From the NCBI GenBank assembly GCA_030280995.1, contig JASXTE010000005.1:27368501-27432500 (forward strand): a stretch of DNA of 64,000 bases, written 5' to 3'. Origin of the DNA: Hemileia vastatrix (taxonomy: Eukaryota; Basidiomycota; Pucciniomycetes; Pucciniales; Zaghouaniaceae). Below are positions 2,035-52,842 of the stretch, one piece after another. The translations under genes were made by a program, and so were the position numbers. Within the stretch, counting starts at the first letter, position 1. The number at the start of each line of letters is the position of its first letter. Under the pieces are notes generated by a model. That model had not been told where the DNA came from and did no database searches. It saw only the letters and a list, made by a program, of their open reading frames with translations.

Positions 2035-2126
2035 GACTGACTGGGTTCGGCATCTAAACTATATACATGCGGGCATTATTGTGCCCTAACCTAATTTGCT
2101 ATTATCACTAATTACCAGGTCCTAAT

Positions 2127-2751
2127 AACAACATCCCTTAGATATATACATAATTCTTACGCTTGGTGTGCAAGTGTGATATTATTACCGAATAGGGAAA
2201 AAAACACCCACTACTACAAATACATACGGTGTGCAAGTTAGATACTACTGCATTATGGGGCAACAAAAATATGTTGCCGGGCACTGTACAATCCTTTGTT
2301 AAATATGCAAGTACTACTTCAGTACAGGCTCAGTTTGTGAACACTGAACTATTATATACATATTTAATTTATTTTTTATCACCAGTAACTTATAAGTGTG
2401 GTAATGGCAATCAATATGAGTCAAATGATGATAACGAGCAAACAATTTTGTGACTCTAAACCTTGCGCAATCACTGAAATCTTAAATTAATGTGCACTTT
2501 AAAATCATTCCCTTAAATATGTATATAATAGTTCAGTGTTCACAAACTGAGCCTGTACTGAAGTAATACTTGCATATTTAACAAAGGATTGTACAGTGCC
2601 CCGCAACATATTTTTTTTGCCCCATAATGCAGTAGTATCTAGCTTGCACACCATAGTATTTGTAGTAGTGGGTGTTTTTTCCCTATTCGGTAATAATATC
2701 ACACTTGCACACCAAGCGTAAGAATTATGTATATATCTAAGGAATGTTGTT
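2127..2751. repeat. Foldback element: 240-bp inverted repeat with a 145-bp loop
   Basis: Arms 2127-2367 and 2513-2751 are near-perfect reverse complements. Each arm contains the same false ORF in opposite orientation. The centre (2368-2512) is AT-rich and non-coding. No transposase and no clear target duplication are visible. It may be a foldback-type MITE or two inverted copies of a short LTR-like sequence. Confidence 0.85.
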
Positions 2752-4490
2752 ACATAGTATGAGACATCAAAAAAATTTGAATTGAAAATAGACAAAAATA
2801 GCATCACCGGCGTGCACCTAACACTTTTGGTTGAGTGTGCCGGTGTGTCCTAATATAGTCCCTTTATATATTCAAGCACATCGTTGAAATACAAAACACC
2901 AAAAGTGTGATCTTTCTAGGTTTGATAAATAGGGGCTCTAAAAATTAGAAATCTGCCATTTATCAAAAAGTATTTCTTGTCACAGAAATAAAACTGCAAA
3001 CTCAGTTTTATTTATCAAAAAAGAAAGAAAGAAAAAGAAAAACTTTTGACACAAGATATTTTATGTTTAACAAAACAAACTTGACTGACTTGATGAGGAA
3101 AAAAAACCCCCTTTTCAATGTTAAATAATAAATCAGCATTTCCCCTCTTATTTTTTTCCTCTTTCAAGTTTTTATTGAATTTCAAACCTGGAAATACCAA
3201 CCATTTCAATCATCTCTTGCCACTTTTTAAAGATAGACTAGTGTTTCATATTCCTGTTATGTGCTCATTGTTCCTCCATATCACCATGATGGGTCACAAA
3301 ACCTTTTAAAAAAACTCTTTATTGTTAGAGATCCTACGTGCAAAATGTTGCATATTTAATGATGTGTATTGGTTATTATGTATACCATCAATGAAAATTT
3401 TCATATTGTGTCAGCCTGGATATCCCCAGGACTGCGTAAAATATGCTAGAGACATGTATTACACATGGGGACAATAAGCGAAAGTATACAATATGCATAC
3501 ATAAGTGAAATAAGTCAGTTAATACAATATATGTCATTATAATACTTTAAATACATGCATATACCCACCTTTTATAAGTCTTATGTACTTAATATTAGGT
3601 TGTAATATGTTAGGGTAATCTTAAGAACCTTATACATAAGGTTACATAATTTTCAAGTAGACTTAAAGCTGTTATTTTCATTATTATAGTGAAATAATGA
3701 ATAAATGCACTTTAAATCACTTAAAAGTTGAATATATGCACTATAAATTTTATAATATTAAAATTGCACTTTGACAGATCAATTTTTCTTATTTAGGACT
3801 ATTGATTTGGCCACTCAAATGCATAAAAATTACACATTTCAAAACTGATGTTTTTTTATGCTAGAAATGGCTTCTGTGTACTGGCCTCATACTGCCTGCT
3901 TTTATCCCATGTGCATATCATCATTATTAACAAAGTTAGTAATTTCACCCTATAATTACCCCACATTGTATGCTCCATATGTGTAAACATGTTAAAATAA
4001 GCAAGAGGCGCTTATTTAGTGTCCTAATATCATTATTAGTGCATTTACCTCATTAGGGGGTATCAAACATTATCATATACGCCATTCAAGCAAGCCTCAA
4101 AAAAGGTACCAAGTAAGTCATTTTAATTTGAACTACATACTCCATTAACTGGTATACTTCAACAGCATGCTTTTCTCTACACACACCATCTGTTGGGTAC
4201 ATCCAAGCCCCTCAACTTGATTGGTCAGCATTAGGTACACACACGCCCATACCTTAAATTTTTTATTGACCTGATCCTTAGGCACCCATTCTTATATGCA
4301 CAGTACACTCTGTTGCAAGCTATAATTCATCCCTAACATCAAGGTCCTTCTGAAAAAACTTTCATATTGGGATACTCAAATAGTGGACAATATGTCTTCT
4401 GAATTACACTTGAGCTAGGCTTAAATTACGTATGTGCTGCTGTAGTGCAATGTGCCAATCTACCTACCCCTGAAATTTTTGATGACAGTG
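2752..4490. other. AT-rich gene-free stretch with an LTR-like remnant at 3409
   Basis: I see no credible coding region. From 3409 the sequence begins TGTCAGCCTGGATATCCC, which closely matches the 5' terminus of the family C LTRs found at 13321, 14489, 22145 and 23231. This is probably the start of an old, diverged C-like LTR; its 3' end cannot be set. The rest is unassigned. Confidence 0.5.
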
Positions 4491-5220
4491 ACTCTTGCAT
4501 TACAAAAGCGACCCTCCCACATTAATTTGCAACTTCCAATGGTGCAAATCATGGATTTAATCCATAATTTGGATTATTGAACTCTTATACTTTAAAAGCA
4601 AGCCTCTCACACTGATTTGCCATAGCCAATGGTGAAAATCATAGATTTTGTCCATAATTTGCATTATTGAACTCTTATACTCCAGAAGCAAGCCCCTTTC
4701 ACTGGTTTGCCACTTCCAATGGTGAAAATCAAGGATTTCATCCAAAATTTGCATTATTGAACACTTATACTCCAAAAGCAAGCCTCTTGCACTGATTTGC
4801 CACTGCCAATGGTGCAAATAATGGATTTCATCCATAATTTGCATCATTGAACTCTTACATTTCAAAAGCGAGCCCCAAACACTAGTTTGAAACTTCCCAT
4901 GTTTCAAATCATGGACTTCATCCATAGTTTGCATTATTGAACTCTTAAATTGAAAAAACAAACCTCTTGCACTGATTTGCCATGGCCAATGGTGCAAATT
5001 ATAAATTTCATCCATAATTTCCATCATTGAACTCTTATACTCCAAAAGCAAGCCTCTCGCAGTGTTTTGCCCCTGCTAATAGTGCAAATAATGAATTTCA
5101 TCCATAATCTTTATTATTGAACTCTATTACTCCAAAAGCGTGCCTCTTGCACTAATTCTCAACTTCAGATGCTGCAAATCAAGAATTTCATCCATAAAAT
5201 GCAACATGGAACTCTCATAT
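4491..5220. repeat. 90-bp minisatellite, about eight copies, no indels
   Basis: The anchor ATTGAACTC (or a close variant) occurs at 4576, 4666, 4756, 4846, 4936, 5026, 5116 and 5206, exactly 90 bp apart, although copies differ visibly in sequence. Because 90 is a multiple of three, the minus strand shows a 164-codon frame made of 30-residue repeats. Stops interrupt that frame in the outer copies, and substitutions fall at all codon positions, so I treat it as non-coding. The array ends exactly where the B2 3' LTR begins (5221). Confidence 0.85.
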
Positions 5221-6307
5221 TGTAGACAGTCCTATAGTACTAGCTATAGGCCTTGACCAAGGGAGTTGGAGTAAAACCAGAGAGAAAAACCCCTGTCCCT
5301 TTAGAAAAATAAGTGAGATTTACCTGCTACAGTAAATTGCTTCCTGTTTACCAAAAGCCCCTTTTCCAATACACTTGACTTCTTGATCAGTCAAGAAAGT
5401 AGTCTCCAGACAGACTACCAAACCAAAGAACTGAAATGTAGACTAATGTCCACACCAGAGAAAGCAATAATACTTGATGTAGGTTTCAAATCCACACCAG
5501 AGACAGCAATAATACTTGATATAGATTGCAAGACTACACCAGAGAAAGCAGTTGCTAAGTTAATTTAAATGAAGAACTCACTTGCAACAAACACAGCCAA
5601 TTGTGGCCAAAAAACAGTGAAAACTGAGTGAGGAACAAGGATATAACCTCTGGATGGTTGTATGATAATTAGAGTTGCCCCAAACTGTCTTATTCACTAT
5701 ATACACACAGACAACTAACTAAGAGCCCATGCACACCCACAAATTTGGCGTTCCTGACCACCAAATTGCATAAAAACTCCCTAGAAGCGCTTCCCAGCCC
5801 TCTAGCACTGAGGCAAGCAGTCCCCCCGACTTCGGGAAGGCCGCCTGAAGCAGCCTGACCACCCTGAAGCCAGAAAACCACCAAAAACACCCAAACTACT
5901 TAGAAAAATTATCTACAACTACTAAAACCCTTAAAACACATAATTACACTATAAAAACATTGTGAAATGAAATGTAGATAAAATACTGCTCATTCCAATG
6001 GTACTAAGCACTTAACCCTAAGACTTAAGATTAGCCCATAAAACAAAAAACAAAATTCAACAGCAATCTTTTAAAATGAAAAATGAGAAATTATTCCCCA
6101 AATACTTAAGCTATGAAAAATTTCCCCAAGACATAAAATATAGAGAAAAACCAGAGCTATCCATTTGTAGTAACCGCTTCCCTGTAATCCCAATATTTGC
6201 TGGGTAATTCCAGAAAAACACCTAATTATTTAACAATTCCATTTAAGGCATACCAAAACAACACCAAATAAACCAACAAAGGGCTCCGCCAATGATGGAA
6301 GACCACA
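5221..6307 (-). mobile_element. B2 3' LTR
   Basis: It is about 1087 bp and begins (minus strand) TGTGGTCTTCC at 6307 and ends TCTACA at 5221. The palindrome CCTATAGTACTAGCTATAGG at 5231-5250 lies ten bases from the terminus, as in the other A and B LTRs. A short direct repeat of about 48 bp (ACACCAGAGAAAGCA core) occurs 2.5 times near 5450-5555. Confidence 0.85.
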
Positions 6308-6325: not shown

Positions 6326-6992
6326 ATGTCCACATTCTCCTTTACCACAACCACCATTATCAGCTTTCTCTCCAAATCTGCTACTGACATGGGCCCCTGC
6401 CAATACTGCATTAACAACACTCTCATCTGTACCATCTCACCACTGGCTTGTCCCTACATAACCTCCTGTGATGCCTGCCACTCTAGAAAAAAGACTTGCT
6501 TCAGACATGGTCCATTTTACTCTTCAACATCTTCTCCTTCTCCACAACCTGATCCCCCTTCCACCAGCACCAAAAGATCCAGGCCATCTATCCTGATTCC
6601 CAGACTGGTACACAAATTACACCCTTCAAAAAAGAGTGCCAACACCGCTACTACCACTATCTCTATCATCCCTGGTCCTTCTGATGGTAAACACAAAACT
6701 TCTTCATCCTGAATTCCAATCTGACAAATTTCCAGCTCCTTTCCCTCCTGACAGCAATGATGACAATGTGGGAACCATTGAAGCACCCCCACCTAATCCA
6801 TTTCCCACCATTAAGAAAAAATTTCAACGATATTCTTCTCAACAGAAGCATCTCTTACTATAATACTTCCAATCCACTCCTACTAGGGACCCACAGGATC
6901 TTGAGAAGAGGAAGAACCTCATACATCAGTTCAAAGCCAATGCTGAACATTTTGTTACATCTCTTGATTCTCTTCTGCCTCCTGACTCTTAA
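6326..6992 (+). CDS. aORF1: antisense zinc-cluster protein in the B2 tail, one intron
   Basis: The gene lies opposite to pol and starts 19 bp inside the 3' LTR border. There is an ATG at 6326, but sister copy B1 shares only the in-frame Met at 6389, which may be the real start. From Met6389, cysteines follow C4-x2-C7-x6-C14-x12-C27-x2-C30-x6-C37, the spacing of fungal Zn2Cys6 clusters. The basic residues (S-R-K-K-T) sit in the second half. A Pro/Ser-rich linker follows. A 49-nt intron at 6687-6735 (GTAAAC, CTGAC, TTTCCAG) joins two in-phase exons. The second exon meets TAA at 6861, where B1 has AAC, and then stays open to TAA at 6990-6992. Role unknown; DNA binding is inferred from the cysteine spacing only. 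Confidence 0.6.
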
Positions 6993-7058
6993 TTAATCTC
7001 TTGACTTAGAAATAAAAAAAATTCATGACCTTTCGAGACTTCCTGAATTTTTCCAATC

Positions 7059-7200
7059 ATCATAAAAAATTACCTCAGTTTACAGTCTTGGGGGACTAAT
7101 CCTCAGTTTTAAGTCTTGGGGGACTAACAGCCCTCATTTTATAGTCTTGGGGGACTCAAAACCCTCAGTTTATAGTCTTGGGGGAATAAAAACCTAAATC
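7059..7200. repeat. Dyad-motif array 1 (AGTC-N6-GACT family) in the B2 tail
   Basis: Four copies of CTCAGTTTATAGTCTTGGGG followed by GACT (reverse complement of AGTCCCCCAAGACTATAAAC plus TGAG) occur about 30 bp apart. Each has AGTC and GACT as an inverted pair, next to a TATAAA- or TTTAAA-like block. The same motif recurs in the tails of elements A and B1. It lies between aORF1 and aORF2. Confidence 0.8.
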
Positions 7201-7258
7201 AAAAAGACAGAACCAGAGATCAAAACATTTAACACCCAAAGAAACAAACTAAAATTCT

Positions 7259-7300
7259 GGGTTAACTGTTCTACAGAGCAGCCAGCTCATCAGTTACCCC
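7259..7300. other. Nested hairpin module, B2 copy 1
   Basis: Outer arms pair as GGGTTAACTG with CAGTTACCCC (one mismatch) around an inner GAGC/GCTC stem. This is one of seven related copies in elements A, B1 and B2. All are followed on the element's sense strand by a conserved context (GGCAAGTGTGGGGG upstream, CCCCAGA downstream). Confidence 0.75.
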
Positions 7301-7371
7301 CACACTTGCCTTAACAGAATTCAGAGACTCCCCCTTGGATGCCCTCTTCCAGAATCACACCAACTCCCATT

Positions 7372-7535
7372 ATCAGTTTATAGTCCTGAAGGACTCAACC
7401 CTTAAACCCTCCTCAGTTTATAGTCCTGGGGGACTATACCATTTCTCAGTTTAAAGTCTTGATGGACTGACAAGTGTTCATTTTAAAGTCTTGATGGACT
7501 TTTTGCAATTTTCAGTTTAAAGTCTTGACGGACTG
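7372..7535. repeat. Dyad-motif array 2 in the B2 tail
   Basis: Five further copies of the CAGTTTAWAGTCNTGNNGGACT motif lie between the hairpin at 7259 and aORF2. Spacing is irregular (30-60 bp). Variation falls mainly in the six bases between AGTC and GACT. Confidence 0.75.
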
Positions 7536-7679
7536 TTGCATAGCAGAGGTGGTGCCACCTCCATACACAATTCTCTGCAGCCAAGCTGCTAAACTTCCAC
7601 TCTTTCTTCATCATCTACACATCACTGATAAATCTGTTTATTCATCTCTTTTCTCTCAACTATTGCTCCTTCACAGGTT

Positions 7680-10067
7680 ATGGCTGGATCACCAAATTTT
7701 GACCCATTGGACCTTCCCTTCTTCACTGCTCCTAAGGACTATGCTTGTAAACAGTGCATACACATGTGCAGACCTTGCACATTCACTCTTCCTACTTCCC
7801 AGGCCAAATTCTATAACAGGGCCTGTTATTCTTGCAATTCAAAAAAGAAAAGGTGTGAAAGACATCCCAACTACCCAATACCTCCGCCTTCACCCTCACA
7901 CAAATATATATCCAGATCTCCTACCAGGTCACCAGAGCTTGGACCTGCTTCTTCCTCTTTGTTTTCTGCTCCTTCCAGAAGATCCCACTGTTCCATTTCC
8001 AAGACCATTCCTAAAAGACCAGCTTTATCTTCTCAAGAATCTGCTTTCCTCTCAGAAAATTCAGCAAAAATGACACCAAAATCAGCTCCTAGGCTGCTGG
8101 ACCGCGTCCAGGCCGCTCTCCTGACTTTGGGCAGCCCACCCACCTTGATCAGAAAATGAATATCAGGCTCAGAACACTCATTTTCAGCCAGAAAACAACC
8201 AGATTCTTCCATCTAACACCAATAACTCCACACCACAAACTTCTAATTCTCCCAGAGCAATGCGTACTGCCACCATTTCTTCTTCTATCAACACCACAAG
8301 CTCCAAGATCTCTATAAAGCTTCCTAGAGGACCCACTTCAAACCCTAGAACAGCCAACACTGTTTCTAAATGCAAGAATCCTGTTACTCCAGGGAGAAAA
8401 AACTTCACCTCTCCTCTGGACACCAATTATTCATCTGATAATTCTCTTTCTTCTGGATCTTCATTCAGCAGATCACCATCTCCTGGTCCTTCCTTCAATC
8501 AACCTGGCACTCCTCTGCCAGTATCTACCAAACCTGCACCAAGCAATAATATAAAAAATAACAACAACAACAGCCATGTTGCTGCAATCAGGTCACAGAT
8601 AACTCCTTCTTCTCCTTCATCCTCTCAACACCATTTAGAGGATAACCCTGAAATCCATACCTCCATCTGGTGGACCCTCCTACAACACCTATTCAACACT
8701 CTTCAGTCATCCAGATTCCAGCTGCATGCAAATTTGAGGATCTCCCAATCTTTAAGTACCAAGATATAATAAGAAAATTCAATTTCTTCAACAGAAAATA
8801 ATTATTGAACCAATTTTTCTGTTTTTAGTTGGAACCCCACCTCGTGAAACTGCATTTGGAATTGGCAACCCCAAGAAACTTCTTTGACACTGGATTATGC
8901 TGATATGAAGCAACACCTTAGCGTGATGTGTTCAAACATGCTTAAAGCCTTTACTCTCCATGGTTTGTTGAATGATTTTGAGAAGAATCTGAGAAAAAAA
9001 CTCCTTGATGACCTCTGGAAGATACCTCGAATTATCAAGCACACTTTCCAGCACTCCATTCCTGCTTCCTCCTCTTCCTCCCACAGTTTACCTTCAGACC
9101 CAGTTACTGACCACTATAACCTGTATACTTTCTCGAGCCGCTTTCACGCGCCACCTGACACTCAAGGCAAAAGCAGCTCATTAAATCAATAATAAGAGAT
9201 TTAAATCCATACTCGAAGCGCAGAAAGCAATTCTCCATAGCAACTGCGACTTTTCTTTGTGTACTCGTTATTCAACCACGCTAGTCTAAACTCTAAATCT
9301 AAATTAGTCAATATCTCAATAGTGTGTCTTAGTCTTTTTCTCAATAAGCAAAGCACCGCAAAATAGTCAATGTAATAGTACGCTAAAAGGTTTATGAAAT
9401 GTCTGTGGATTATTAAAAGGGGTAGTGAGCATGGACGGAATGGTTAGTGGAGGACTAAGGGGTTAAAGGATGTTAGTGAGGAGGGTCCAGGTGTAACAGG
9501 TGTATTTTGATGGTCTGTGATGTGCGGAATAGTGATGGGTATGAGGTCAATGCGAGGAAGAGTAAAGGATATAAAAAGGGGTTGGGTTTTTGGTTCAATA
9601 CTCTTTAGAATTAAATTATAAAAAACGTATTTATAGTTAATAGTGGTAAAAGCTTTAAGTTAAATCATTATTATTGTATCTTTCTTTATTTTCTCAATAA
9701 TCATTTCTAAATCCTAAATCTTTGATTGTTGAGTTTCCAACCCTTAGTGAGATTTTAAGAATTTTAACCTTACCTTTAAATTATATTAGAATTCTTCTTG
9801 AACATATCTCGGAGCAGTAGTTCTTCCTTTGAGTCATCTTTGAGTCACTTCCTCAAATCATTCCTCTGTGCTTCAAAGAAGTCTCTAAACCCCTCATCTA
9901 ACTTTCAGGAACATCCTCGATCTTGTGCGTGGGTCATCCGGTGACAGCCACCTGCACTAAAAAGAACACAGTTCTTCCTCTTATCCAAAAAAGAAACAAA
10001 AATGCCAACACCATCTGGACCAACCACCAGAGGCTTCTTCATCCCGTCATTAAATAAAAGAATTTAA
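7680..10067 (+). pseudogene. aORF2: second antisense zinc-cluster gene in the B2 tail, interrupted by a solo LTR
   Basis: The ATG at 7680 follows a pyrimidine-rich CTTCACAG acceptor-like site that B1 shares. The first block (7680-8159) carries C-x2-C-x6-C-x15-C-x2-C-x6-C ending N-S-K-K-K-R-C, then R-H-P. This is the same layout as aORF1, so the two are probably paralogues. Ser/Pro-rich blocks follow at 8260-8769 and 8884-9155 in another frame. The breaks between them may be introns or frameshifts; I could not settle splice sites. Solo LTR H with its 6-bp duplication interrupts the last block. Removing it joins 9155 to 9953 in frame to a stop at 10065-10067. B1 has the homologous first block at 51200-51537 (minus), with stops inside the second cysteine half. 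Confidence 0.55.
9156..9946 (+). mobile_element. Solo LTR H with 6-bp target duplication
   Basis: The 791-bp sequence starts TGACACTCAAGG and ends CATCCGGTGACA. It is flanked by GCCACC at 9150-9155 and 9947-9952. A TATAAAAAGGGG promoter-like block lies near 9570. No internal domain remains, so it is a recombined solo LTR. The orientation (+) is inferred from the promoter block. A related but diverged LTR lies at about 43924-44509 on the minus strand. Confidence 0.75.
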
Positions 10068-10130: not shown

Positions 10131-11008
10131 TTGTTTTATTTTATTTTTATTTCATATTTTTTATTTTTATTTTTATTTTTATTTTTATTTTTATTTTTAT
10201 TTTTATTTTTATTTTTATTTTTATTTTTATTTTTATTTTTATTTTTATTTTTATTTTTATTTTTATTTTTATTTTTATTTTTATTTTTATTTTTATTTTT
10301 ATTTTTATTTTTATTTTTATTTTTATTTTTATTTTTATTTTTATTTTTATTTTTATTTTTATTTTTATTTTTATTTTTATTTTTATTTTTATTTTTATTT
10401 TTATTTTTATTTTTATTTTTATTTTTATTTTTATTTTTATTTTTATTTTTATTTTTATTTTTATTTTTATTTTTATTTTTATTTTTATTTTTATTTTTAT
10501 TTTTATTTTTATTTTTATTTTTATTTTTATTTTTATTTTTACTTTTACTTTTATTTTTAATTTTAATTTTAATTTTAGTTTTAATTTTAATTTGAATTTT
10601 AATTTTAATTTTAATTTGAATTTTAATTTTAATTTTAATTTTAATTTTAATTTTAATTTTAATTTTAATTTTAATTTTAATTTTAATTTTAATTTTAATT
10701 TTAATTTTAATTTTAATTTTAATTTTAATTTTAATTTTAATTTTAATTTTAATTTTAATTTTAATTTTAATTTTAATTTTAATTTTAATTTTAATTTTAA
10801 TTTTAATTTTAATTTTAATTTTAATTTTAATTTTAATTTTAATTTTAATTTTAATTTTGATTTTAATTTTAATTTTAATTTTAATTTTAATTTTAATTTT
10901 AATTTTAATTTTGATTTTAATGTTGATTTTAATTTTAATTTTTATTTTAATTTTATATTTATATTTATATTTATATTTATATTTATATTTATTTTTATTT
11001 TTTACTTC
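10131..11008. repeat. Hexanucleotide microsatellite: (TTTTTA)n, then (TTTTAA)n, then (TTTATA)n
   Basis: About 420 bp of near-pure TTTTTA (roughly 10150-10555) changes to TTTTAA (10556-10950) and ends in a short TTTATA run. A few interruptions occur near the transitions. The phase is kept, so two long frames (Leu-Phe and Asn-Phe repeats) appear; they are artefacts. It lies between aORF2 and the duplicated tail modules of B2. Confidence 0.95.
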
Positions 11009-12199: not shown

Positions 12200-13320
12200 T
12201 CAATCTTCTTCACTTCTAGTACCTCTTGGGTAAAATCTCATCACCTGATCAGCAGCCACTCTCTTCTTTAAGACTGCACCATCTAACTCTTCCAAAACAT
12301 AAGAACCTCCAGACACCTGAGATCAGACTCTGTAAGGCCCATTCCATCTGTCAGAAAACATTTTTCCCCACTGATTCTACAAACTTCTATTATACACCAA
12401 AACCAAACAACCAGGTTTTAAGGGATTCCTGAGTCTATTATCCAACTTCTTGTCCCAGTATCTGACTGGTTTACTTCTTATCTTCATCATTATAGAGTAT
12501 TCCTTCTCTTGACATTCCTCTCTACATTCCATCTCTTGCATTCTGGCACAGAGCAAATCTTCTGATGAGCATAAATGATCCCAATCAATTCCAAGATAGG
12601 AGACGGCTTCCAAATCCACTGGTAGAACAGCTTTCTGACTAAACATTAATTCATAAGGAGAATAGCAAATTGTCCTCTTCACAGTGACCCTATCAGCAAA
12701 TAATACCAAGGGTAAATAATTCCTCCATTTTTCAGCACTATCTCCACACATCTTCACCAAAGCATTTTTAATAACTTGATGGCCTCTTTCAACCATGCCT
12801 TCAGCTTCAGGATAATAAATTTTAGACACCCTTAATTTAGAACCAATACTTGCAAGAGCCTCTTTAAATTCAGCTCAAAACTCTGGCCCACCATCAACAG
12901 TCACCAACTTCATCAACCCATATCTAAACATACATTCCTTCTTCAAATTTTCTGCCACATTCTTGGCAGTCAAAGTAACCAGAGGTGCTTCTTCCACTCA
13001 ACCAGAAAATGAATCCCTGGAAACAATTAAGTATTTATAACTGCCCTCTTTAATATGGACAGCATCCAAACTGACTATTCCAAACACAATTGATTGACCA
13101 GTAGCACAGCCAACCTCTTTAGGTTTCAAGTGACTTCTTCTTTGACATTCTTGACAAGATTGAACCCAACCCTGCACAGTCTAATTTTAACCAGGCAACC
13201 AAAATCTGTCTGCTATTCTTCTATAAGTCTCCCCAAAGCCTCTATGACCAATATATTCATAAAACGCCTTCAACACCAACTCTTGAAACTTCTTCTGAGT
13301 CACCACATCTTGAGGATTTG
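12200..13320 (-). pseudogene. B2 integrase (C-terminal two thirds of pol end)
   Basis: One reading frame with about four stop codons runs from the C-cluster junction to a TGA at 12200-12202. The zinc-binding HHCC region shows G-H-R-G-F and C-Q-E-C-Q-R-R. The catalytic triad is visible as S-L-D-A-V, T-V-D-G-G-P-E-F and E-G-M-V-E-R-G-H. The C-terminus has the G-G-S-Y-V-L-E-E-L-D-G block typical of this fungal Ty3 lineage. There is no chromodomain. B1 lacks this whole region. The frame was split when the C cluster inserted at 13320/24408. Confidence 0.85.
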
Positions 13321-14488
13321 TGTCAGCCTAGATATCCCTAGGACTGAGTATTTCTTATGCTTAAAATAAGATAACCTTAAGTAAATTAAGTTTATATCTT
13401 AAAAATAAGGTTAAAACAATAATATATATTATTATATTACATATATATATAATTATTATTCTATTATATAAATTATAGTAGCTTAAATAGCTTATCCCTA
13501 GCCTAAAAATACTTATTAAGGTGTTAATAGAGTCATAATATACTTATTTTAAGTGATATGAAGTAATTATTGACATACATAAGCTTATATGTATACATAA
13601 ATCCCATATTCAGTGAAATATGCAGTATATTATGTATATTTATGTATATTTAGGTATATAAGTGGGTTTTAGCCACTTACTAGCCTAAAACCTTTGTTTT
13701 TCTGCTTATTTTAGGTCATATGGACAAAATCAGTGGACTCACAACGCCTACAGAAGCATAGACATCTATATCAGGTGCATACACTCAGTTTGGACAACTT
13801 AATTTACTTCCTTGGATGGTTATTCACAGTTTTATGGGTTGGAAGGACATTTCTGGGTTAATGTGGATGCTTGGGGATGTTATTGGGGGCTTGGACATTA
13901 TATTTGTTTCCTTTATATGCTTTGGGTTTCATTAAATCTCTTTTTGATTGTTTATTTTACCTGTTTCTTTATGGTATCAGCTTTTATCTGGATTTTCTAT
14001 TTGTGGTATAGATCTGTGTTATCACTAATTGTGATGGAGGGTCCTTACTGGAGTTCTGGGTGTTGAATCTGCTTAAATTGGACGCCATGGGGAGGTGATG
14101 GGCCCTCACAGTGCTGTAATTGCCGGGGATAGCAGTGACATCATCTGGATTGAAGGTCTGTGCACTCCAGTGGATTTGGGTTTAAGTAAGGAGGGATTTT
14201 GACGGTTATTTATCATCATTCAATTACTACAATTCAAAAAAATACTACAATACAATTATTAGCACTCAGAAATATATTATAAAGCCATTATAAAGTGATA
14301 TTATCTTTATATAAGCTATAACTATATTTTATTCATCTATTTTCCACCACTAGCACGCATTTAAATCCAAGTATTGTGAGATTTATTTGAGTATAACTAT
14401 TTTATTAGTCTTCCCCTGAGGTTTAATCACTAAATCATTTATTAATAAGTAGTAGGACCATAAATAGACACTATTATATCATACTTAT
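13321..14488 (+). mobile_element. C LTR 1 (lacks its last 20 bases)
   Basis: Starts TGTCAGCCTAGATATCCC and stops at ATCATACTTAT, where the second LTR begins directly. Complete C LTRs are 1177 bp and end ACTAGAATATACTGACA. An 84-codon hydrophobic frame inside is shifted in LTR 2, so it is not treated as a gene. Confidence 0.85.
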
Positions 14489-15665
14489 TGTCAGCCTAAA
14501 TATCCTTAGGACTGAGTATTTCTTATGCTTAAAATAAGATAACCTTAAGTAAATTAAGTTTATATCTTAAAAATAAGGTTAAAACAATAATATATATTAT
14601 TATATTATATATATATATAATTATTATTCTATTATATAGCTTATAGTAGTTTAAATAGCTTATCCATGGCCTAATAATACTTATTAAGGTGTTAATGGAG
14701 TCATAATATACTTATCTTAAGTGATATGAAGTAATTATTGACATACATAAGCTTATATGTATACATAAATCCCATATTCAGTGAAATATGCAGTATATTA
14801 TGTATATTTAGGTATATAAGTGGGTTTTAGCCCCTTAATAGCCTATAACCTTTGTTTTTCTGCTTATTTTAGGTCATATGGATGAAATCAGTGGACTCAC
14901 AACACCTACAGAAGCATAGACACCTATATCAGGTGCATACACCCAGTTTGGACAACTTAATTTACTTCCTTGGATGGTTATTCACGTATTTATGGGTAGG
15001 AAGGACATTTCTGGGTTAATGTGGATGCTTGGGGATGTTATTGGGGGCTTGGACATTATATTTGCTTCCTTTATATGCTTTTGGTTTCATTAAATCTCTT
15101 TTTGATTATTTATTTTACCTGTTTCTTTATGGTATCCGCTTTTATCTGGATTTTCTATTTGTGGTATAGATCTGTGGTATCATTAATAGTGATGGAGGGT
15201 CCTTACTGGAGGTCTGGGTGTTGAATCTGCTTGAAGTGGACGCCATGGGGAGGTGATGGGAACTCAAAGTGCTGTAATTGCCGGGGATAGCAGTGACATC
15301 ATCTGGATTGAAGGTCTGTGCACTCCAGTGGATTTGGGTATAAGTAAGGAGGGATTTTGACGGTTATTTATCATCATTCAATTACTAAAACTCCAAAAAA
15401 CACTACTATACAATTATTAACATTTAGAAATATATTTTAAAGCCATTATAAATTGATATTATCTTTATATAAGCTATAACTATATTTTATACATCTATTT
15501 TCCACCACTAGCACACATTTAAATCCAAGTATTGTGAGTTTTATTTGAGTATAACTATTTTATTAGTCTTCCCCTGAGGTTTAATCACTAAATCATTTAT
15601 CAATAAGTAGTAGGACCATAAATACACACTATTATATCATACTTATATACTAGAATATACTGACA
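14489..15665 (+). mobile_element. C LTR 2 (complete, 1177 bp)
   Basis: Begins TGTCAGCC and ends ATACTGACA with short terminal inverted repeats. The following ATTGGGGGTCTTTCC would be the priming region; I cannot assign a tRNA to it. The leader to the first gag ATG (15666-16175) has no gene. Confidence 0.85.
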
Positions 15666-16175
15666 ATTGGGGGTCTTTCCTTATATTTTACTTATTATTT
15701 AGTATAAGCCTTAGGACGTGATTTTTACCTTAGTACAGCTCAAAATAACCAAATATTTGGGTCTGCTGCATATTAGTGGGTCATCATAACTCATTGATTG
15801 CGGAAAAGAACCCTTAAAATAATTTTACTAATTTTTTATCATATAAATTAGATATTTACAGTAGTAACTGTATCAAATATAAACCCAGTTTCACTTGGTA
15901 TTTGGACACCAATATAACACCCAATTAACTTGGTATTTGGTTAAAGCTTGGTAAGCTACTTATTCACCCTTATAGAGGTCTAGTTAAACTTATTATTATA
16001 TATTTAAAAGATATTTTTGAATTTTTCTTATAATTTATTTAAATAAATAAAGATATAAATTCAAGGTAAGCTCCATTGCTTTTTTATTAGTAATAACATT
16101 GCTAATATCTTTTGTCTACTACTTTCATAGAGTTTTTTCCTTTTGTAGACGTAAAATATTGTCATTTTTAACAAT

Positions 16176-18125
16176 ATGAGTGCTCCCCAGGACAGTGTAA
16201 GTGAAAAGCCTGCTTATAACACCAGGTCTATAGCTAACAAAAACTTTCCAGGACATCACCATGGAGGGTCAACAATACCCTCAGGCAGAAAGCATGAGTA
16301 TAGAGGAAAGGGACGCCCTCTTAAAAAAGATAACTATAAAAAAGACATCTCCTCCTCTTCAGAATCAACTGTCCCACCTGGCCAAACAGGTTCTGAAGTT
16401 GGAAGAATCAAAATCACTCATGTTCAAAGAGGTAGAGCAATTTCAAAACAATTGCAAGGTAGGGTTTCAGCAGATGAATCAGGAATTGGCAGAGTTAAAG
16501 GGAGGACAGCCCAGTCAGTCAAATCAGCAACCCCCTATCCAAGGCAGGTCAACTCACTCCCAGGAGAAAATCCTGGTAGACAAATAGAAATGGGACTGGT
16601 TTCATCAACAGTGGACAAGCCACAGTTGCAACAGGGATCCACCACCTCATCTGACTTCCTCAGCTCACCCTTACAAAGGAAAAAAGCGCCAAAAATCAGG
16701 ACTGGAAACCATCCCATGGTAAGTAGATTACCCTCTCAGATTGAACATAATACTGATAATTACAATATAGGTAATTCTATTGATGTTAAATCTGTGCAAA
16801 AAATAGAGGAGGATTTAAGAAATTTAGGTTTTAGAGTAGATACACCTGACTTGTCTTTTGTCCACAATAACAGTACTATTTATAATGATAATACAGTTAA
16901 CCCTTAGTTGTAACCACCTACTAGTGAGATGAGAAGTTCACAGGAGAGTGAGAGAATTGAAAAGGAAGACATGGAATATTTTAACCATAATCCAACTGTC
17001 CATAGAATTGTTTCAGCATTGTGGAATAGAATGACTGATTGTGAGGAACAGACGGTTAAGCTCACTAGTGATACAATTTCATCCTTGACATTAAACATTT
17101 CTCAATTAGCAACACGTAACAAAGAATTAGAGAAAGAACATTTGTCTCTAACTCTTAAATATGATTCATTAAGTAATAAATATAATGACCTTTCAAACAA
17201 ATTCTGTGAGTTAGAAAAATCATATGAAACACATTTATTAAAAACTGAATCAAGAACAAAGTTATCTTTTGCCCATACAAATCAAAGTGTCTCTGAGTTA
17301 CTACAAAGATTAACTAAAGTAGAAATTGAAACTTCCAATCTACTAATGAACCAGGATAATCATAAGTATAATCAATATAATAATAATCCTTTCATTGGCA
17401 AAAGTGAATCTCATTCCTTCCCTATACCACCACAATTAAAATTATCTGGTGGTAGTGTCAAATCTGAAAATGTAAGTCACAAATACATGCAGGAGGAAAT
17501 ACAAGACCATTTATCAAAAGTGAATGAGTTGTTGAATTTACCTAAGATTAGTGAGATAAAATCCAATCAGAAAAACTGGCCTAAGATAGATCAGTACCCA
17601 ACCTATGATGGGGAAGCCAGCTCTCATTGGCAACATTTTATTCAAAGAATTGACAACTTGAAATTCTCATATAAGTTACCAGATGATGAAATAACATCAA
17701 AATTAACTTCTTTATTTAAGGATGTTGCTTTATTATGGTTTGAAGCTGTCTTGAGTGAGGGTAAAGATTACTCTTGGGCTGAATGGAAACAACTTATTGA
17801 AAAACAATTTGGAGGTTCTAAATTCAGGCTTACTCAGCAGAGACTTTATGAGAAGACTAGGTTTAATCCGTTGAATGGTGAAAAACCTATGGTATTTTTA
17901 ATGAATTCAAATAAAATATTGAAAGCCATTGAGCCTCATATGGATTTTAACTTATGGAAAGATAAGATAATATATAAATTACCTATATCTGTCAGAGACA
18001 TTGTTGTAGCTAGAACATTAAATGTTACTGAATATTCTGATTATATTAATATTTGCAATGAAATATTATTAAACCATAAGTATGAATCAAGGTATTCTAC
18101 TTATAAAAAAATGTTGAACTTGTAA
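16176..18125 (+). pseudogene. C gag (long frame)
   Basis: The frame starts at an ATG at 16176. An N-terminal N-T-R-S-type stretch and a Ser/Lys-rich disordered part are followed by TAG-TTG-TAA at 16905. It reopens in the same frame with an ATG at 16929. The second block has a coiled-coil N-half (about residues 40-140) and a retrotransposon Gag domain (W-Q-H-F-I near 17630, then R-I-D-N-L-K to I-C-N-E-I). The related element E has sense codons at the double stop. The frame ends at 18125. A lost A in the A-run near 18105 would explain why the knuckle follows in another frame. The 16929 block could equally be the true gag start. Confidence 0.75.
16261..16587 (+). CDS. Overlapping coiled-coil ORF inside C gag, +1 frame
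   Basis: 108 codons start at an ATG in a strong context (CACCATGG), 85 nt after the outer ATG and in the +1 frame. The product starts M-E-G-Q, has S-I-E-E and K-I-T-I-K-K, then a heptad-like Leu/Glu region. Element E has a matching ORF at 62799-63080 in the same relative frame, starting M-D-Q-K, with S-E-E-L, K-I-K-K and a similar heptad region. After the stop (TAG here, TGA in E) both frames continue with W-rich and P-Y-K/Q-G text to a common P-W-stop. It may be a real gag-side product; function unknown. Confidence 0.5.
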   Translation: MEGQQYPQAESMSIEERDALLKKITIKKTSPPLQNQLSHLAKQVLKLEESKSLMFKEVEQFQNNCKVGFQQMNQELAELKGGQPSQSNQQPPIQGRSTHSQEKILVDK

Positions 18126-22028: not shown

Positions 22029-22144
22029 TACTGTTTATTCAGTATATGTATTATAAAAATTATTTTTTATTTTTATATTTCACTCCTTAGTTTTAATTAA
22101 AATGTCTTAACATTTTTTTTATTGTTTTTTTTGGGGTGAGGGAG

Positions 22145-24407: not shown

Positions 24408-24412
24408 ATTTA

Positions 24413-33438: not shown

Positions 33439-35760
33439 TTCCTCCGAAATGAGGATAAACTACATAATTTGTTTTGGTTTTTCTTAATTTGGCCTCTATG
33501 TATTTGGTCAGGATTTTTTTTCTCCAATTCTTATCAGTCTCTCTGGTTCAAGTCTCTATATAAAAAAGGGAGGCCAGGCCGCTTCAGGCGGCACCTCCAA
33601 CGTCGGGTGGCCTGCCCGTAATGAAAAAATAAAATCTTAGTATAATGAAGATGGAAGAGAAGAAAAATTAAAGTGAAGATGGGTATTTTATTTAAAATAA
33701 AATGAAGATAAAAATGAAGATTATTGGTTTTATTTCACCTCCGGAAAGATGTTAAACTGCAAAATTTTATTTCCAAATTGGATGTTTTTGGCTTTCAAGA
33801 ATTTTAATGGTTTTTTATGGGAGAAGATTTGTGTTGGAAAATCCTTTTTGTTAGAAGGTACCCATGGGTGGGGCTTCTAGATTTTATTTTGGCAAGTGTG
33901 GGGGTGACTGATGGGCTGGCTGCTCTATCAACAGTTACCCCAGATTGTCTGTTTCCAGCCCCTTCTCTTAATTTTGTCAAATTCTAGTATTGGTTTTTTT
34001 TCTTTAACAGGTTTTTAGTCCACCATGACTTTAAAATGGAAATTCTTTTGGTATTCAAGTGCTGGACCCCTCATGTTTATTTGTTTTGTTTAATTTTGTT
34101 GGATGTTGTGTTTTTGTTAGAAGGTACCCAGGGGGGGGCTTCTAGATTTTATTTTGGCAAGTCTGGGGGTAACTGATGGGCTGGCTGCTCTGTAGAACAG
34201 TTACCCCAGAATGTCTGTTTCAAGCCTTTGGTTTTTTTCTAGTTGAATTCTAGTGTTGTTTTTTTGTGATTCAGGTTTTTAGTCCTCTATGACTTTAAAC
34301 TGGATTGCCTTGGATTTCTTCTGGTGCTTTTGGATTGGTGGTGGATCACTGGTGGTCTCCCATCATTTTTACTTAATGGAGGGAGCCCACCCAGTGATCT
34401 TTTCTGTTGACCTGGAGCTGGCTTTGCTATGTGGTTCTAGGGTGTTGGCTGTGAAAGTGGTGGATTCAAGATTATTTTCTCTTTTTCTCTTTTTTTTCTT
34501 TTAATTTTTTTATGGAGGCTATGTTTGTTCAAAGGCTCAAGATAGGGCTCTGGAAACGTTTTTAGTAGAAGAGGAGGAGTCAAAATAAAAAAAAATTTTT
34601 TTTAGGTGTGACCACATCAAGGTGCACTTGGATGTGGGTAAGGTATCAGGGGATCAGCTCATCGATCGGCTGGGGGATATCATTTTATTTTGTTTTATTT
34701 GTTAAAGGAGGTTAAATGTTTTGGCTTTGATGGTTTTTGGTTCGGGGATTTATGGGCTATATCTTCAAGATTTTAATTTTCTGGAAAGTCCTTCATGACT
34801 TTAAACTGATCTTTTAATCACGGGCTCAAGATTTTTTGATGTCCATCAAGACTTTAAACTGAAAATTCTGTTAGTCCTCAAAGACTTAAAACTGGCTGGT
34901 TGTTAAAGATTTATTCAAGAATTTAATTTAACTACTGTGGATCTAGTAGTCCTCCAAGACTTTAAACTGGCTGGTTTCAAGATTTTGTCAAGAAGTAGTC
35001 CGTCAAGACTTTAAACTGAACACTGTGTTAGTCCCCCAAGACTTTAAACTGAGGATTGTTGATGGTGAAGTCCCCCAAGACTATAAACTGAGGAATGGAA
35101 GGCAGTGTGAGGTGGAAGTTTAAAAGGCAGAAGAATCCAAGGGGGAACTTCTGAATTTTGTAAAGGCAAGTTTGGGGGTGACTGATGGGCTTGAAGCTCT
35201 ATATACAGTTACCCCAGAAAGTTAGTTACTTCTCTAAATCTTTTTCTGGTTGATCTCTGGTTCTGGGTTCTGTGATTCAGGTTTTTGCAGTCCCCCAAGA
35301 CTATAAAATGAGGATTTTTGGAGTCCCCCAAGACTATAAACTGAGGCCTGTTAGTCCCCCAAGACTTTAAACTGAGGGCTGCTAGTCCCCCAAGACTTTA
35401 AAATGAGGGCTGTGAGTTCCCCAAGACTATAAAATGAGGAAATTTTTATGCTGGTAGAAGGTTATAGTCAGGAAGACTTATCAACTGGATATCACTATTC
35501 ATTGTTGGAGGCTGGTAAAGCCAGAAATGGAATTCAGGAACTGAAGAAAGATATTTTTTCACAGAGATAGATTGAATTTAATGGTATGGTGCAAGAGAAT
35601 TTTTAAAGAAGAAGCTTGGATTGCTGGTTCAGAAGTTCACTTAGGATGGAATAGGATCTGGTGGAAGAGAGAAATGGGCTGTTTGTAAAGATTCTGGAGA
35701 GGTGTTCAAACATGGCTGTTGGCAAAGGAAGAATGGGGACATTCTTGATTGGAGGGAGGA
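33439..35760 (+). other. Element A tail: three hairpin modules and about 14 dyad motifs
   Basis: Hairpins are at 33901-33941, 34166-34207 and 35175-35215. Dyad motifs are scattered from 34015 to 35435, densest at 34780-35110 and 35280-35435. The GATGTGGG module is near 34630. Near the PPT, a minus-strand remnant (M-S-P-F-F near 35740) aligns with the start of aORF1, but the cysteine cluster is gone. No gene is left here. Confidence 0.75.
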
Positions 35761-50614: not shown

Positions 50615-51185
50615 AATTTTCTCACTCCCCCATGAGGCTAAACTGGAAGATTGTTCTTTACTCCCCCAAGAGGTTAAACTGGCTGGTTCTGATCTTGATT
50701 CTGGTAATCAGAATCTTTTCTATGATGAAGATGGGGCTGTTGTTTGGGATGACTCAAATTTAAAAAATGGTGTTTTTGTAAGTGAACTGGATTCTCTTAA
50801 GATTCAGTGGAAGGAAAAGGATGTACCAAATATTAGGGATTGGTGTCCTGGTTGGGCCGGTCTTGATGCTCATATGCACACTGGTGATTTTGATGAAAGG
50901 GTTGTACACTTGGATGTTTTGTTGTTAAATTTTGAAGATGAGACCTGGGGTCAGACTGGGTTTTATTTTATTTTGGTTGAATATCTGTTAGCCTTGCAGA
51001 GGCCAGATATTTGTGATGATGATACTTGGGTTGCAATAAAGAAGTAAATTCCTGGCTTCTATGTGTCAGGAAGAGGGTTGATAAGGAGGAGACATCCAAA
51101 TTCTCAAGTTGTGGTGACTAAGAAGAAGGGTCAAGAGTTGGTGTTGAATTCTTTGCATGACGACCTTTGTCATAGATTCTTGAGA
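50615..51185 (+). pseudogene. B1 RNase H-integrase linker, cut at the deletion
   Basis: Frame 50517-51047 holds an acidic linker with W-C-P-G-W-A-G-L-D-A-H and D-E-T-W-G-Q-T-G, matching B2. Homology to B2 integrase stops in the first His of the HHCC domain (L-C-H-R near 51170). Confidence 0.75.
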
Positions 51186-51540
51186 AGATAATTCAGGTCT
51201 TTTAGGAAGTGTTTTGGTAATAGAATTGCGTGATCTTCTGGAAGGAGCAGAAGATAAAAAAGAAGAAGCAGTTCCAAGTTCTGGTGACCTGGTAGGAGAT
51301 CTGGAAATATATTTATGTGAAGGTGAAGGTGGCGTTATTGGATAGTTGGGGTCTCTGTCACATCTTTTCTTTTAAGAGTTTCAGGAATCACAGGACCTGT
51401 TATAGAATTTGGCCTGAGGAGTAGGAAGAGTGAAAATGCAAGGTCTGCACATGTTGATGCACTGTTTACATGCATAGTCCTTTGGAGCAGTGAAACAGGG
51501 AAGGTCCGATGGGTCAAAATCTGGGGATCTATCCATGATC
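51186..51540 (-). pseudogene. B1 aORF2 fragment (zinc-cluster gene, antisense)
   Basis: The ATG at 51537 opens M-D-R-S-P-D-F-D-P, aligned to B2 aORF2. The first half C-K-Q-C-I-N-M-C-R-P-C is intact. The second half reads C-D-S-stop-N-S-stop-K-K-R-C, so a Cys and a Lys codon have become stops. Ser/Pro text continues to the deletion edge at 51186. Confidence 0.65.
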
Positions 51541-51687: not shown

Positions 51688-52090
51688 TAAGTCTGTCAAG
51701 ACTTTAAACTGAAAATTTCAAAAGTCTGGCAAGACTTTAAACTGATTACTGTGGTTGAGTACTTCAGGACTATAAACTGATAATGGGAGTTGGTGTGATT
51801 CTGGCAGAGGCAATCCATGGGGGAGTCTCTGAATTTTGTTAAGGCAAGTGTGGGGGTAACTGATGAGCTGGCTGCTCTGTAGAACAGTTAACCCAGAATT
51901 TAGTTTGTTTCTTTGGGTGTTAAATGTTTTGATCTCTGGTTCTGTCTTCTTGATTTAGGTTTTTAGTCCCCCAAGACTATAAACTGATGGTTTTGAGTCC
52001 CCCAAGACTATAAAATGAGGGCTGTTAGTCCCCCAAGACTTAAAACTGAGGATTAGTTCCCCAAGACTGTAAACTGAGGAAATTTTTTAT
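51688..52090. repeat. B1 tail: dyad motifs and one hairpin module
   Basis: Seven dyad copies (three at 51688-51780, four at 51960-52090) flank the hairpin at 51853-51894 (GGGGTAACTG...CAGTTAACCC). Order and spacing match B2 7059-7535 in reverse. Confidence 0.8.
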
Positions 52091-52144: not shown

Positions 52145-52794
52145 AAGTCAAGAGATTAATTAAGAGTCAGGAGGCAGAAGAGAATCAAGAGATGTAACAA
52201 AATGTTCAGCATTGGCTTTGAACTGGTGTATGAGGTTCTTCCTTTTCTCAAGATCATGTGGATTCCTAGCAGGAGTGGATTGGAAGTAGTTTAGTAAGAG
52301 ATGCTTCTGTTGAGAAGAATGTTGTTGAAATTTTCCTTGATGGTGGGAAATGGATTAGGTGGGGGTGCTTCAATGGTTCCCACATTGTCATCATCACTGT
52401 AAGGATGGAAATGAACTGGAAATTTGTCAGATTGAATTTCAGTATGAAAGAGTATTGGGCTTACCATAAGAAGGACTAGGGTGGTAGAGCTAGTGGTTGT
52501 AGCAGGGTTGGAACTCTTTTTTGAAGGGTGTAATTTGTTGACCAGTCTGGGGATTAGGATGGATGGCACGGATCTATTGGTGCTGGTAGAGGGTGGATCA
52601 GGTTGAGGAGGAGGAGAAGACATTGAAAAAGACAATGGACCAGATCTGAAACAAGTCTTCTTCCTAGAGTGAAAGGCATCACAGTAGGTTCTGTAGGGAT
52701 GAGCCGGTGGTGTGATGGTACAGATGAAATTTTTGTCAATGCAGTATTGGAAAGGACCCATGTCAGTAGCAGATTTGGAAAGAAAGCTGAACAT
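52145..52794 (-). pseudogene. B1 aORF1 (zinc-cluster gene, antisense)
   Basis: The 167-codon frame starts at an ATG at 52794. The shared Met (M-G-P) is 11 residues in. Cysteines corresponding to C4 and C30 of B2 are Phe. The 49-nt intron is present with GTAAGC, CTGAC and TTTCCAG. Two 1-nt deletions shift frame relative to B2. The last exon (L-E-K-R-K-N-L-I-H-Q-F) matches B2 to the same stop. Confidence 0.65.
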
Positions 52795-52842
52795 TGTGGT
52801 TGTGATAAAGGAGAATGTGGAAATTCTCCATTGGAAGGATGA

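What the first reader, a model, noticed from the sequence alone, without database searches (positions are those of the whole stretch)
6326..10067. Antisense Zn2Cys6-like gene pair carried in a Ty3/Gypsy tail
Sequence: two genes on the strand opposite pol, between integrase and the 3' LTR, each have C-x2-C-x6-C-x(12 or 15)-C-x2-C-x6-C with K-K before the last Cys and R-H-x-P-like text after it. The same genes, at the same positions, occur in the sister copy B1 (52794-52145, 51537-51186). Knowledge: antisense accessory ORFs between pol and the 3' LTR are known in plant Tat/Ogre elements; Zn2Cys6 is a fungal transcription factor fold. The basic residues here sit in the second half, which is not the classical arrangement. 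Inference: the element may encode its own DNA-binding regulator, expressed from an antisense promoter in the 3' LTR.
Basis: partly seen in the sequence, partly recalled or inferred. Interest (0 to 1): 0.88.

Follow-up and report, generated by a model that had tools for sequence, protein, structure and literature searches.

The report
Antisense zinc-cluster-like genes in retrotransposon
A very abundant jumping element in a large, probably fungal genome carries two spliced genes on its opposite strand that selection has kept as proteins, most likely DNA-binding switches that control the element itself.

Summary
A Ty3/gypsy element, with about 4,000 integrase and gene 2 matches, carries two genes antisense to pol between integrase and 3' LTR. 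Each has two exons. Splice sites, frame and domain cysteines persist between two old versions (s1, s2/Y). Against within-group singletons, replacement changes between versions are depleted 3-4 fold (ratios 0.23-0.33), except in gene 2's linker (0.68). Only the antisense frame combines low dN/dS (0.15-0.29; linker 0.56) with almost no stops.

The cysteine domain resembles fungal Zn2Cys6 with its halves swapped; one subfamily's gene 1 piece just passes Pfam's cut-off, gene 2 and the window copies do not. Between the genes lies an array of dyads AGTC-N6-GACT (27 in the window, 0.43 expected), kept by a related element without matches to the genes.

U3, both genes, array and tail differ by 19-30% between versions, R-U5 and integrase by 8-10%, about as within s1: this block was exchanged between lineages.

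Most likely they are element-encoded dimeric DNA-binding regulators, made from an antisense U3 promoter, acting on array and U3. Coding and selection are shown; zinc, DNA binding, transcription and regulation are inferred.

The parts
5221..6307 (-). 3' LTR of the element (TG...CA, 1087 bp). R-U5 side 5221 to about 5700, U3 side about 5700-6307
   Evidence: mosaic step
5698..5703 (.). TATATA, candidate core promoter of the sense RNA, near the step between similar R-U5 and divergent U3 (TATA-like text in 16 of 26 LTR rows)
   Evidence: function inferred
5742..5767 (.). weak dyad lead, arms AATTTGGCG and CGCCAAATT (one arm changed here) with 8-nt spacer; the spacer differs between s1 and s2/Y; the loose pattern is in 11 of 24 LTR rows
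6013..6033 (.). place of a 21-bp near-palindrome TAACCCTAAG-A-CTTAAGGTTA in U3 (one letter changed in the window copy); found in 8 of 20 s1 LTRs, a ninth altered, in 3 of 3 s2/Y LTRs and in B1's 3' LTR, not in B5, B1's 5' LTR or element C
6326..6686 (+). antisense gene 1, exon 1, with the six-cysteine domain
6687..6735 (+). gene 1 intron, 49 nt (GTAAAC here, most often GTAAGC in s1; ends CAG)
6736..6992 (+). gene 1 exon 2 (in-frame TAA at 6861-6863 in this copy)
7084..7534 (.). array of eight AGTC-N6-GACT dyads in units of about 31 bp between gene 1 and gene 2; two more at 11669 and 11938
7680..8751 (+). antisense gene 2, exon 1 (cysteine domain, Ser/Pro-rich linker); frame shifted near 8147 in this copy
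8752..8828 (+). gene 2 intron, 77 nt (donor TTAAGT here, GTAAGT in most copies)
8829..10047 (+). gene 2 exon 2, split by about 800 bp of foreign DNA (about 9148-9945)
   Evidence: selection
12377..12796 (-). integrase end of pol (no Pfam hit itself; the matching frames of L043 and L014 hit rve)
52175..52824 (-). gene 1 of the second copy B1 (two Cys replaced)
51126..51536 (-). gene 2 start of B1 (two in-frame stops in its first 100 codons)
51690..52040 (.). dyad array of B1 (five)
34017..35397 (.). twelve dyads in element C, which has no match to gene 1 or gene 2

Best explanation
The element encodes two related regulators on its antisense strand. Transcription from an antisense promoter in the U3 part of the 3' LTR (gene 1 starts 19 bp inside it) gives one or two spliced mRNAs. 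Their proteins carry a small zinc cluster of the Zn2Cys6 kind with swapped halves, joined in gene 2 by a fast-evolving Ser/Pro-rich linker to a conserved C-terminal part. They bind as dimers to inverted half-sites: the AGTC-N6-GACT array between the genes and possibly the palindrome in U3. In this way they tune, probably by feedback repression, both antisense and genomic RNA. Shown: two-exon coding genes, purifying selection, fixed position in the element, dyad array, exchange of the block. Inferred: zinc, dimerisation, DNA binding, promoter, direction of regulation. My own odds: coding genes under selection 0.97; DNA-binding proteins 0.7; acting on the element's own array or U3 0.5; repression rather than activation 0.6.
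For: Selection: ratios against within-group singletons 0.33 (gene 1 exon 1, p=3.8e-4), 0.33 (exon 2, p=1.7e-3), 0.23 and 0.31 (gene 2 residues 1-62 and 63-130, p about 2e-3 each), 0.28 (gene 2 exon 2, p=1.2e-5); six-frame control. Splicing: intron 1 GT 35 of 36, AG 36 of 36; intron 2 GT 29 of 32, AG 27 of 32 readable copies (by eye). Place and number. Domain. Array: 27 against 0.43 expected, spacer 6 far above other spacers and 143 of 173 dyads between the genes, present in both versions and in element C without matches to the genes. Block of U3, genes, array and tail exchanged as a unit.
Against: No RNA, zinc or DNA-binding data. Zn_clus reaches Pfam's cut-off only for one cut piece of one subfamily (21.4 against 21); gene 2 (16.7) hardly exceeds the best of 17 Cys-preserving shuffles (16.5). 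Cysteines of gene 2 are lost in single copies slightly more often than other residues (0.846 against 0.876 kept; gene 1 0.910 against 0.836). High-frequency variants within s1 give 1.30 for gene 2 codons 151-362 and 0.70 for gene 1 exon 2. Two or more spacer positions of the dyad are as conserved as its arms. The zinc-cluster-style site CCG-N4-CGG at 5826 is not conserved. A structure model was uninformative (pLDDT 47). Tandem repeats in such tails also occur in plant Retand elements without a known role (PMC11963269).
Confidence: 0.5

Rival explanations
1. Counter-silencing or copy-number proteins that act on host factors (chromatin, DNA methylation, RNAi) and not on the element's own sites.
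For: Small basic Ser/Pro-rich proteins with a cysteine domain, kept by selection; old copies decay heavily. The dyad array could serve something else.
Against: Array and U3 are exchanged together with the genes, and element C keeps the array without matches to the genes, which fits cis sites better.
Confidence: 0.2
2. RNA-level or structural role: the proteins bind the element's RNA (packaging, transport) or help Gag, and the repeats act as RNA hairpins or packaging signals.
For: Dyads could form short hairpins; zinc-knuckle-like cysteines are typical of RNA-binding Gag proteins; element C, without matches to the genes, keeps the repeats.
Against: The array folds no better than shuffles on either strand (z +0.91 and -0.72). 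The sense gag frames already show a CCHC-like knuckle by eye (ORFs 28739-29593 and 46023-46676). Not excluded.
Confidence: 0.13
3. The antisense transcript itself regulates (antisense RNA against genomic RNA) and the proteins are secondary.
For: Antisense RNAs that restrict retrotransposons are known (Ty1 in yeast, recalled). Position opposite the genomic RNA.
Against: Coding sequence, splice sites and stop avoidance are selected, which an RNA-only role would not need.
Confidence: 0.1
4. Captured host genes or passengers without benefit to the element.
For: Host-type gene structure with introns; no relatives found in the protein collection.
Against: Nearly one gene 2 per integrase (4,060 to 4,339), fixed spacing, selection between two old versions; passengers would decay.
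Confidence: 0.05

Closest known systems
Plant Retand (Tat/Ogre group) Ty3/gypsy elements with antisense ORFs (PMC11963269; passages read)
   Same: Antisense ORFs between pol and 3' LTR in nearly all element clusters, tandem repeats in the same tail in about half, suspected DNA-binding regulators
   Different: They carry TRP28 (PF04195), which no Pfam scan found here; here the genes are spliced, Zn2Cys6-like, in a probably fungal genome, with a dyad array and block exchange
HBZ and APH-2, antisense genes of HTLV retroviruses (mentioned in PMC11963269 passages; otherwise recalled)
   Same: Antisense gene at the 3' LTR, spliced, nuclear regulator
   Different: bZIP-type in HBZ, not a zinc cluster; no sequence relation was seen in the scans
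Fungal Zn2Cys6 transcription factors (PF00172; Gal4/Ppr1 type recalled)
   Same: Six cysteines in two C-x2-C-x6-C halves, basic residues in one half, inverted half-sites with fixed spacing (Ppr1 N6, recalled)
   Different: Halves in swapped order, longer linker (12-15), half-site AGTC and not CGG, no regulatory middle domain found by Pfam
Phage immunity regions (recalled; analogy only)
   Same: A block with regulator genes and presumed target sites replaced as a unit between otherwise similar elements
   Different: Retrotransposon; specificity and mutual blindness are untested

Membership tests
Zn2Cys6 (PF00172) | Six Cys spaced as two C-x2-C-x6-C halves | tested here: met
   Window copy; each domain Cys is the majority residue in 35 copies
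Zn2Cys6 (PF00172) | Score over the curated cut-off (21 bits) | tested here: inconclusive
   Y gene 1 52-residue piece 21.4; Y gene 1 longer piece 18.9; window gene 1 16.3-17.4; gene 2 up to 19.6; best of 17 shuffles 16.5
Zn2Cys6 (PF00172) | Basic (profile-start) half first, then second half | tested here: not met
   First half of gene 1 matches profile 16-35, second halves of gene 1 and gene 2 match profile 1-18
Zn2Cys6 (PF00172) | Binds two zinc ions and DNA | not testable with these tools
   Fold model uninformative
Ty3/gypsy element | RNase H before integrase (H2C2, rve) in pol, with LTRs | tested here: met
   L043 628-aa frame; LTR
Ty3/gypsy element | Intact element with target-site duplication in the window | tested here: not met
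   5-bp flanks differ and the two LTRs share about 79%; the window's two halves may stem from different insertions
Plant Retand/Tat type | Antisense ORFs between pol and 3' LTR | tested here: met
Plant Retand/Tat type | TRP28 domain (PF04195) | tested here: not met
   Pfam scans of exons list no TRP28
Plant Retand/Tat type | Reverse transcriptase of the Tat lineage | not tested
   No tree was made
HBZ-like antisense retroviral gene | Transcribed from the 3' LTR | not testable with these tools
   Position and splice sites fit; no RNA data
HBZ-like antisense retroviral gene | bZIP domain | tested here: not met
   Not listed by Pfam

The most novel reading that the evidence does not exclude
U3, the two antisense regulators and their dyad array form an immunity-like cassette. 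Each version represses its own kind only, so an element lineage that picks up a foreign cassette by template switching (one junction near R, one in the tail before pol) escapes the repressors already made by thousands of resident copies and can spread again. Cassette turnover would then drive successive bursts. The regulators would also be the first naturally half-swapped Zn2Cys6 clusters known to me.
Probability: 0.17. Interest if true: 0.93.

Novelty: new variant of a known kind. Interest (0 to 1): 0.74.

Why it matters
Antisense genes in LTR elements are known from plants and retroviruses, but the plant ones have no known function. Here is a probably fungal case with thousands of copies, introns that fix the strand, selection measured against an internal neutral standard, a recognisable DNA-binding-like domain, a candidate operator array and a natural swap experiment. 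That makes an old question, whether LTR retrotransposons carry their own regulators and whether these set copy number, directly testable. A half-swapped zinc cluster would also bear on how this major fungal transcription-factor fold tolerates permutation.

Tried and rejected
Rejected: (a) chance ORFs. (b) Only two copies. (c) CCG-N4-CGG at 5826, the only one in the window, as a zinc-cluster site: not conserved over 26 LTR rows. (d) RNA hairpin array: folds no better than shuffles. (e) The middle of gene 2 as a constrained domain: 0.68, p=0.07.

Led nowhere: protein searches with window gene 2 (E<=1) and with an alignment of four gene 2 frames (E<=0.01) found nothing; gene 1 was not searched there. 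As a control the RT frame of nested element A found 119 proteins, no shown name being a fungus, so that collection says little about rusts. PDB by profile: two weak unrelated hits. NCBIfam: one chance hit. Structure model pLDDT 47. Literature; of these 9, 10, 50, 53, 80, 81 and 125 asked about antisense, extra-ORF, zinc-cluster or permuted cases and listed no fungal LTR element with antisense zinc-cluster genes. I saw listings with starts of abstracts only, except passages of PMC11963269, PMC12210899 and PMC12774611. The genome-wide count of the array unit did not complete. A PF00172 search of the genome (150 of 3,258 candidates scored) listed 13 matches, none recognised as an element copy.

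Dropped rows: L029 (the same copy as L017b). L025 not in the LTR alignments. The LTR of s2_L030 is not alignable beyond its inner end and is left out of '3 of 3'. The s1 copies L016 and L017 and the copies L039 and B1 were not readable at intron 2. The scripted intron-2 count has misplaced anchors and is not used; the listing was counted by eye. One search used only codon columns with a majority of at least 60% in both groups (104 of 120 for gene 1 exon 1).

Sampling bias: the 20 s1 loci were picked from copies scoring well for both window genes, the s2 loci are the best hits to one s2 copy; only the pattern counts and the linkage test on listed exact matches of C2 are free of that choice.
Full report
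WHERE IT IS. The window is G000:C260:27368501-27432500 of a 747.6-Mb genome in 791 contigs; window G+C is 35%. Cereal rusts and Austropuccinia have 18 chromosomes (PMC12774611, passages), introns here are about 50-77 nt, and the genome has Zn2Cys6 genes (13 matches over the cut-off; only one of them, on C34, lies on a large contig). A large rust genome is my inference, not a result.

ANATOMY. The element lies on the minus strand. Its 3' LTR is 5221-6307 (TG...CA). Antisense gene 1 starts at 6326, 19 bp from the LTR edge. Then follow a repeat array, gene 2 from 7680, a tail with a long TTTTAT-type array (10134-11002), and the integrase end at 12377-12796 on the opposite strand. In a Y-type locus one 628-aa sense frame holds the RNase H end, Integrase_H2C2 and rve in this order (L043), the Ty3/gypsy order. 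All 20 loci L009-L028 carry at least part of the LTR, then gene 1, then gene 2. Integrase plus RNase H of this family follow on the opposite strand in 8 of 20, integrase alone in 2 more (L010; L017, where by position it belongs to an inner s2 copy), within the 10 kb held. All 12 loci L029-L040 hold both genes. Genome-wide, 32-mers with up to 3 mismatches match 3,324 (gene 1), 4,060 (gene 2) and 4,339 (integrase) places, controls 0. On contig C2, 32 of 65 listed exact integrase matches have an exact gene 2 match 2.9-3.3 kb away in the expected direction and on the opposite strand; random placement gives 0.46, at most 3 in 200 trials.

GENE STRUCTURE. In 36 copies (B1 among them) intron 1 keeps GT in 35 and AG in 36; it is 48-49 nt in s1 and B1, 50-51 in s2/Y. 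Intron 2 keeps GT in 29 of 32 and AG in 27 of 32 readable copies and is mostly 77 nt in s1 (75-77 where both ends are kept) and 68-70 in s2/Y (by eye). Lengths differ between versions but the joined frame is kept. An intron on the genomic-RNA strand would be lost on retrotransposition; on the antisense strand it is not, so these introns mark the strand of transcription (reasoning from the known life cycle). No RNA data were available.

SELECTION. I compared 21 s1 copies (window and L009-L028), 12 s2 copies (L017b, L030-L040) and 2 Y copies (L041, L042). Within s1 and within s2 copies decay nearly neutrally (median dN/dS 0.50-0.88; singletons in s1 1.04-1.39 of expectation). Between versions replacement changes are rare. 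dN/dS s1-s2 is 0.35 (gene 1 exon 1), 0.21 (gene 1 exon 2), 0.22 (gene 2 residues 1-62), 0.27 (63-130), 0.74 (131-260), 0.58 (261 to the exon end) and 0.27 (gene 2 exon 2). With within-group singletons as the neutral standard, which also takes up the odd mutation spectrum, the ratios are 0.33, 0.33, 0.23, 0.31, 0.68 (131-363) and 0.28 (exon 2 of gene 2); all but the linker have p<=2.3e-3. The Cys domain of gene 1 alone gives 0.29, p=0.04. Over six frames only the antisense frame combines low dN/dS (0.15-0.29; linker 0.56) with 0.002-0.005 stops per codon; the mirror frame, which shares third positions, shows 0.26-0.52 but 0.028-0.048 stops; the other four are at 1.05 or more. In 35 copies each domain Cys is the majority residue, and none of the positions whose majority residue differs between versions (26 of 120 in gene 1, 17 of 120 in gene 2) is a domain Cys (one, residue 104 of gene 2, is a Cys outside the domain in s1). 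Single-copy losses are nevertheless many (C23 of gene 2 is kept in 21 of 35), and gene 2's Cys are kept slightly less than its other residues (0.846 against 0.876); C>A at GCA and ACA, which turns TGY into TTY, is the fastest change here.

DOMAIN. The gene 1 and gene 2 domains align with each other (31-36% identity; tblastn 37-40% at E<=1e-3), so they are probably paralogous. Gene 2 has two further conserved Cys (14 and 30). Against PF00172, Y gene 1 gives two stretches, the best of residues 23-40 on profile 17-35 (18.9 bits, cut-off 21); cut to 52 residues it reaches 21.4 bits. In the window's gene 1 the best stretch is the second half, on profile 1-17 or 1-18. Scanned alone, the first halves of gene 1 match profile 16-34 and 17-33 (E 0.018 and 0.06) and the second halves of gene 2 match profile 1-16 (E 0.001); gene 1's second halves and gene 2's first half alone gave nothing. 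Coordinates of the second stretch are not printed, so the swap rests on putting these scans together. Of 17 shuffles, 3 matched, best 16.5 bits; window gene 1 has 17.4 and gene 2 16.7 there. I conclude a likely but unproven Zn2Cys6 relative with swapped halves.

ARRAY. Between the genes lie units of about 31 bp, TCAGTTTAWAGTC-N6-GACT. AGTC-N6-GACT occurs 27 times in the window, 0.43 expected, 0 of 100 shuffles reaching that. In 20 loci, for spacers 0-14, the counts are 173 at spacer 6, 18 at spacer 8 and 0-3 at the others. Of the 173, 143 lie between the genes, 0 in gene 1, 4 in gene 2, 14 in the tail, 1 in the LTR and 11 in the pol part (the second copy in L017 falls in the later classes). 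Anchored on the left flank alone, the arms are 92-100% conserved in s1, s2/Y and element C, spacer positions 4 and 5 are 40-77%, but other spacer positions reach 77-100%; the right flank is 28-77%. Both versions have the array in each of the 20 and 13 loci examined. Element C, with no match to either gene, keeps 12 dyads. The spacing equals that of Ppr1-type zinc-cluster sites (recalled), the half-site does not. RNA folding gives no support for hairpins. U3 also holds a 21-bp near-palindrome at one place in both versions (8 of 20 s1 and 3 of 3 s2/Y LTRs; 2.7% of random U3s hold any such palindrome) and a weaker dyad.

MOSAIC. L014 (s1) against L017b (s2): R-U5 90%, U3 79%, gene 1 74%, array region 78%, gene 2 exons 70% and 76%, tail 81%, integrase 92%. 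Five s1-s1 comparisons with L014 give 86-94% for these modules. Synonymous distances say the same: medians 0.54-0.93 between s1 and s2 in the genes but 0.16 (s2) and 0.20 (Y) in integrase against 0.147 within s1 (RNase H 0.24 and 0.31 against 0.18). The LTR step near 5700, close to the TATATA, recurs in 3 of 3 alignable s2/Y LTRs. Synonymous sites should not differ several-fold unless the parts have different histories, so this block was exchanged as a unit. A first-strand transfer at R plus one template switch before pol would do it (inference).

HOW IT PROBABLY WORKS. See Best explanation. The regulators and their presumed sites (U3, array) travel together, as a self-regulation module would need; the same linkage would follow from neutral recombination near an R junction, so it does not prove function.

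LITERATURE. Antisense ORFs between pol and 3' LTR are general in plant Retand elements, with tandem repeats in about half, and are suspected to be regulators (PMC11963269, passages). A survey of rust transposons has no occurrence of 'antisense' or 'zinc' in its main text (PMC12210899, passages). The searches listed no fungal case; most subscription papers are not held.

Noticed in passing
G000:C121:11.06-12.14 Mb: Nine gene 1 matches with identical score, mostly about 100 kb apart: looks like a tandem segmental amplification.
   Followed up: no
21 s1 copies, LTR to gene 2: Rare variants show C>A as often as C>T (455 and 425), strongest at GCA and ACA: an unusual mutation spectrum for a fungal transposon.
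   Followed up: partly
window 24403-36787: The half with gag, RNase H and 5' LTR shares only about 79% in its LTR with the 3' LTR, and the flanking 5-mers differ; it may stem from another insertion or a recombinant.
   Followed up: partly
window 13320-24410: Another Ty3-like element on + nested in pol, with four 1.1-kb LTR-like repeats instead of two.
   Followed up: no
window 30935-36642: Element C, flanked by 882-bp LTRs 96% alike, inserted in the 5' LTR; no match to gene 1 or gene 2 but twelve dyads.
   Followed up: partly
window 4503-5219: 90-bp tandem repeat, eight copies, ending at the 3' LTR edge.
   Followed up: no
window 2126-2367 and 2513-2752: 242-bp inverted repeat, 97% alike, MITE-like.
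   Followed up: no
G000, 12 minor contigs: 12 of 13 classical Zn_clus matches lie off the large contigs, within the first 111 kb of contigs such as C472 and C698; these may be contaminant contigs of another fungus.
   Followed up: no
L049 with L030: An s2 copy whose LTR does not align with the family except for its last 34 bp.
   Followed up: no
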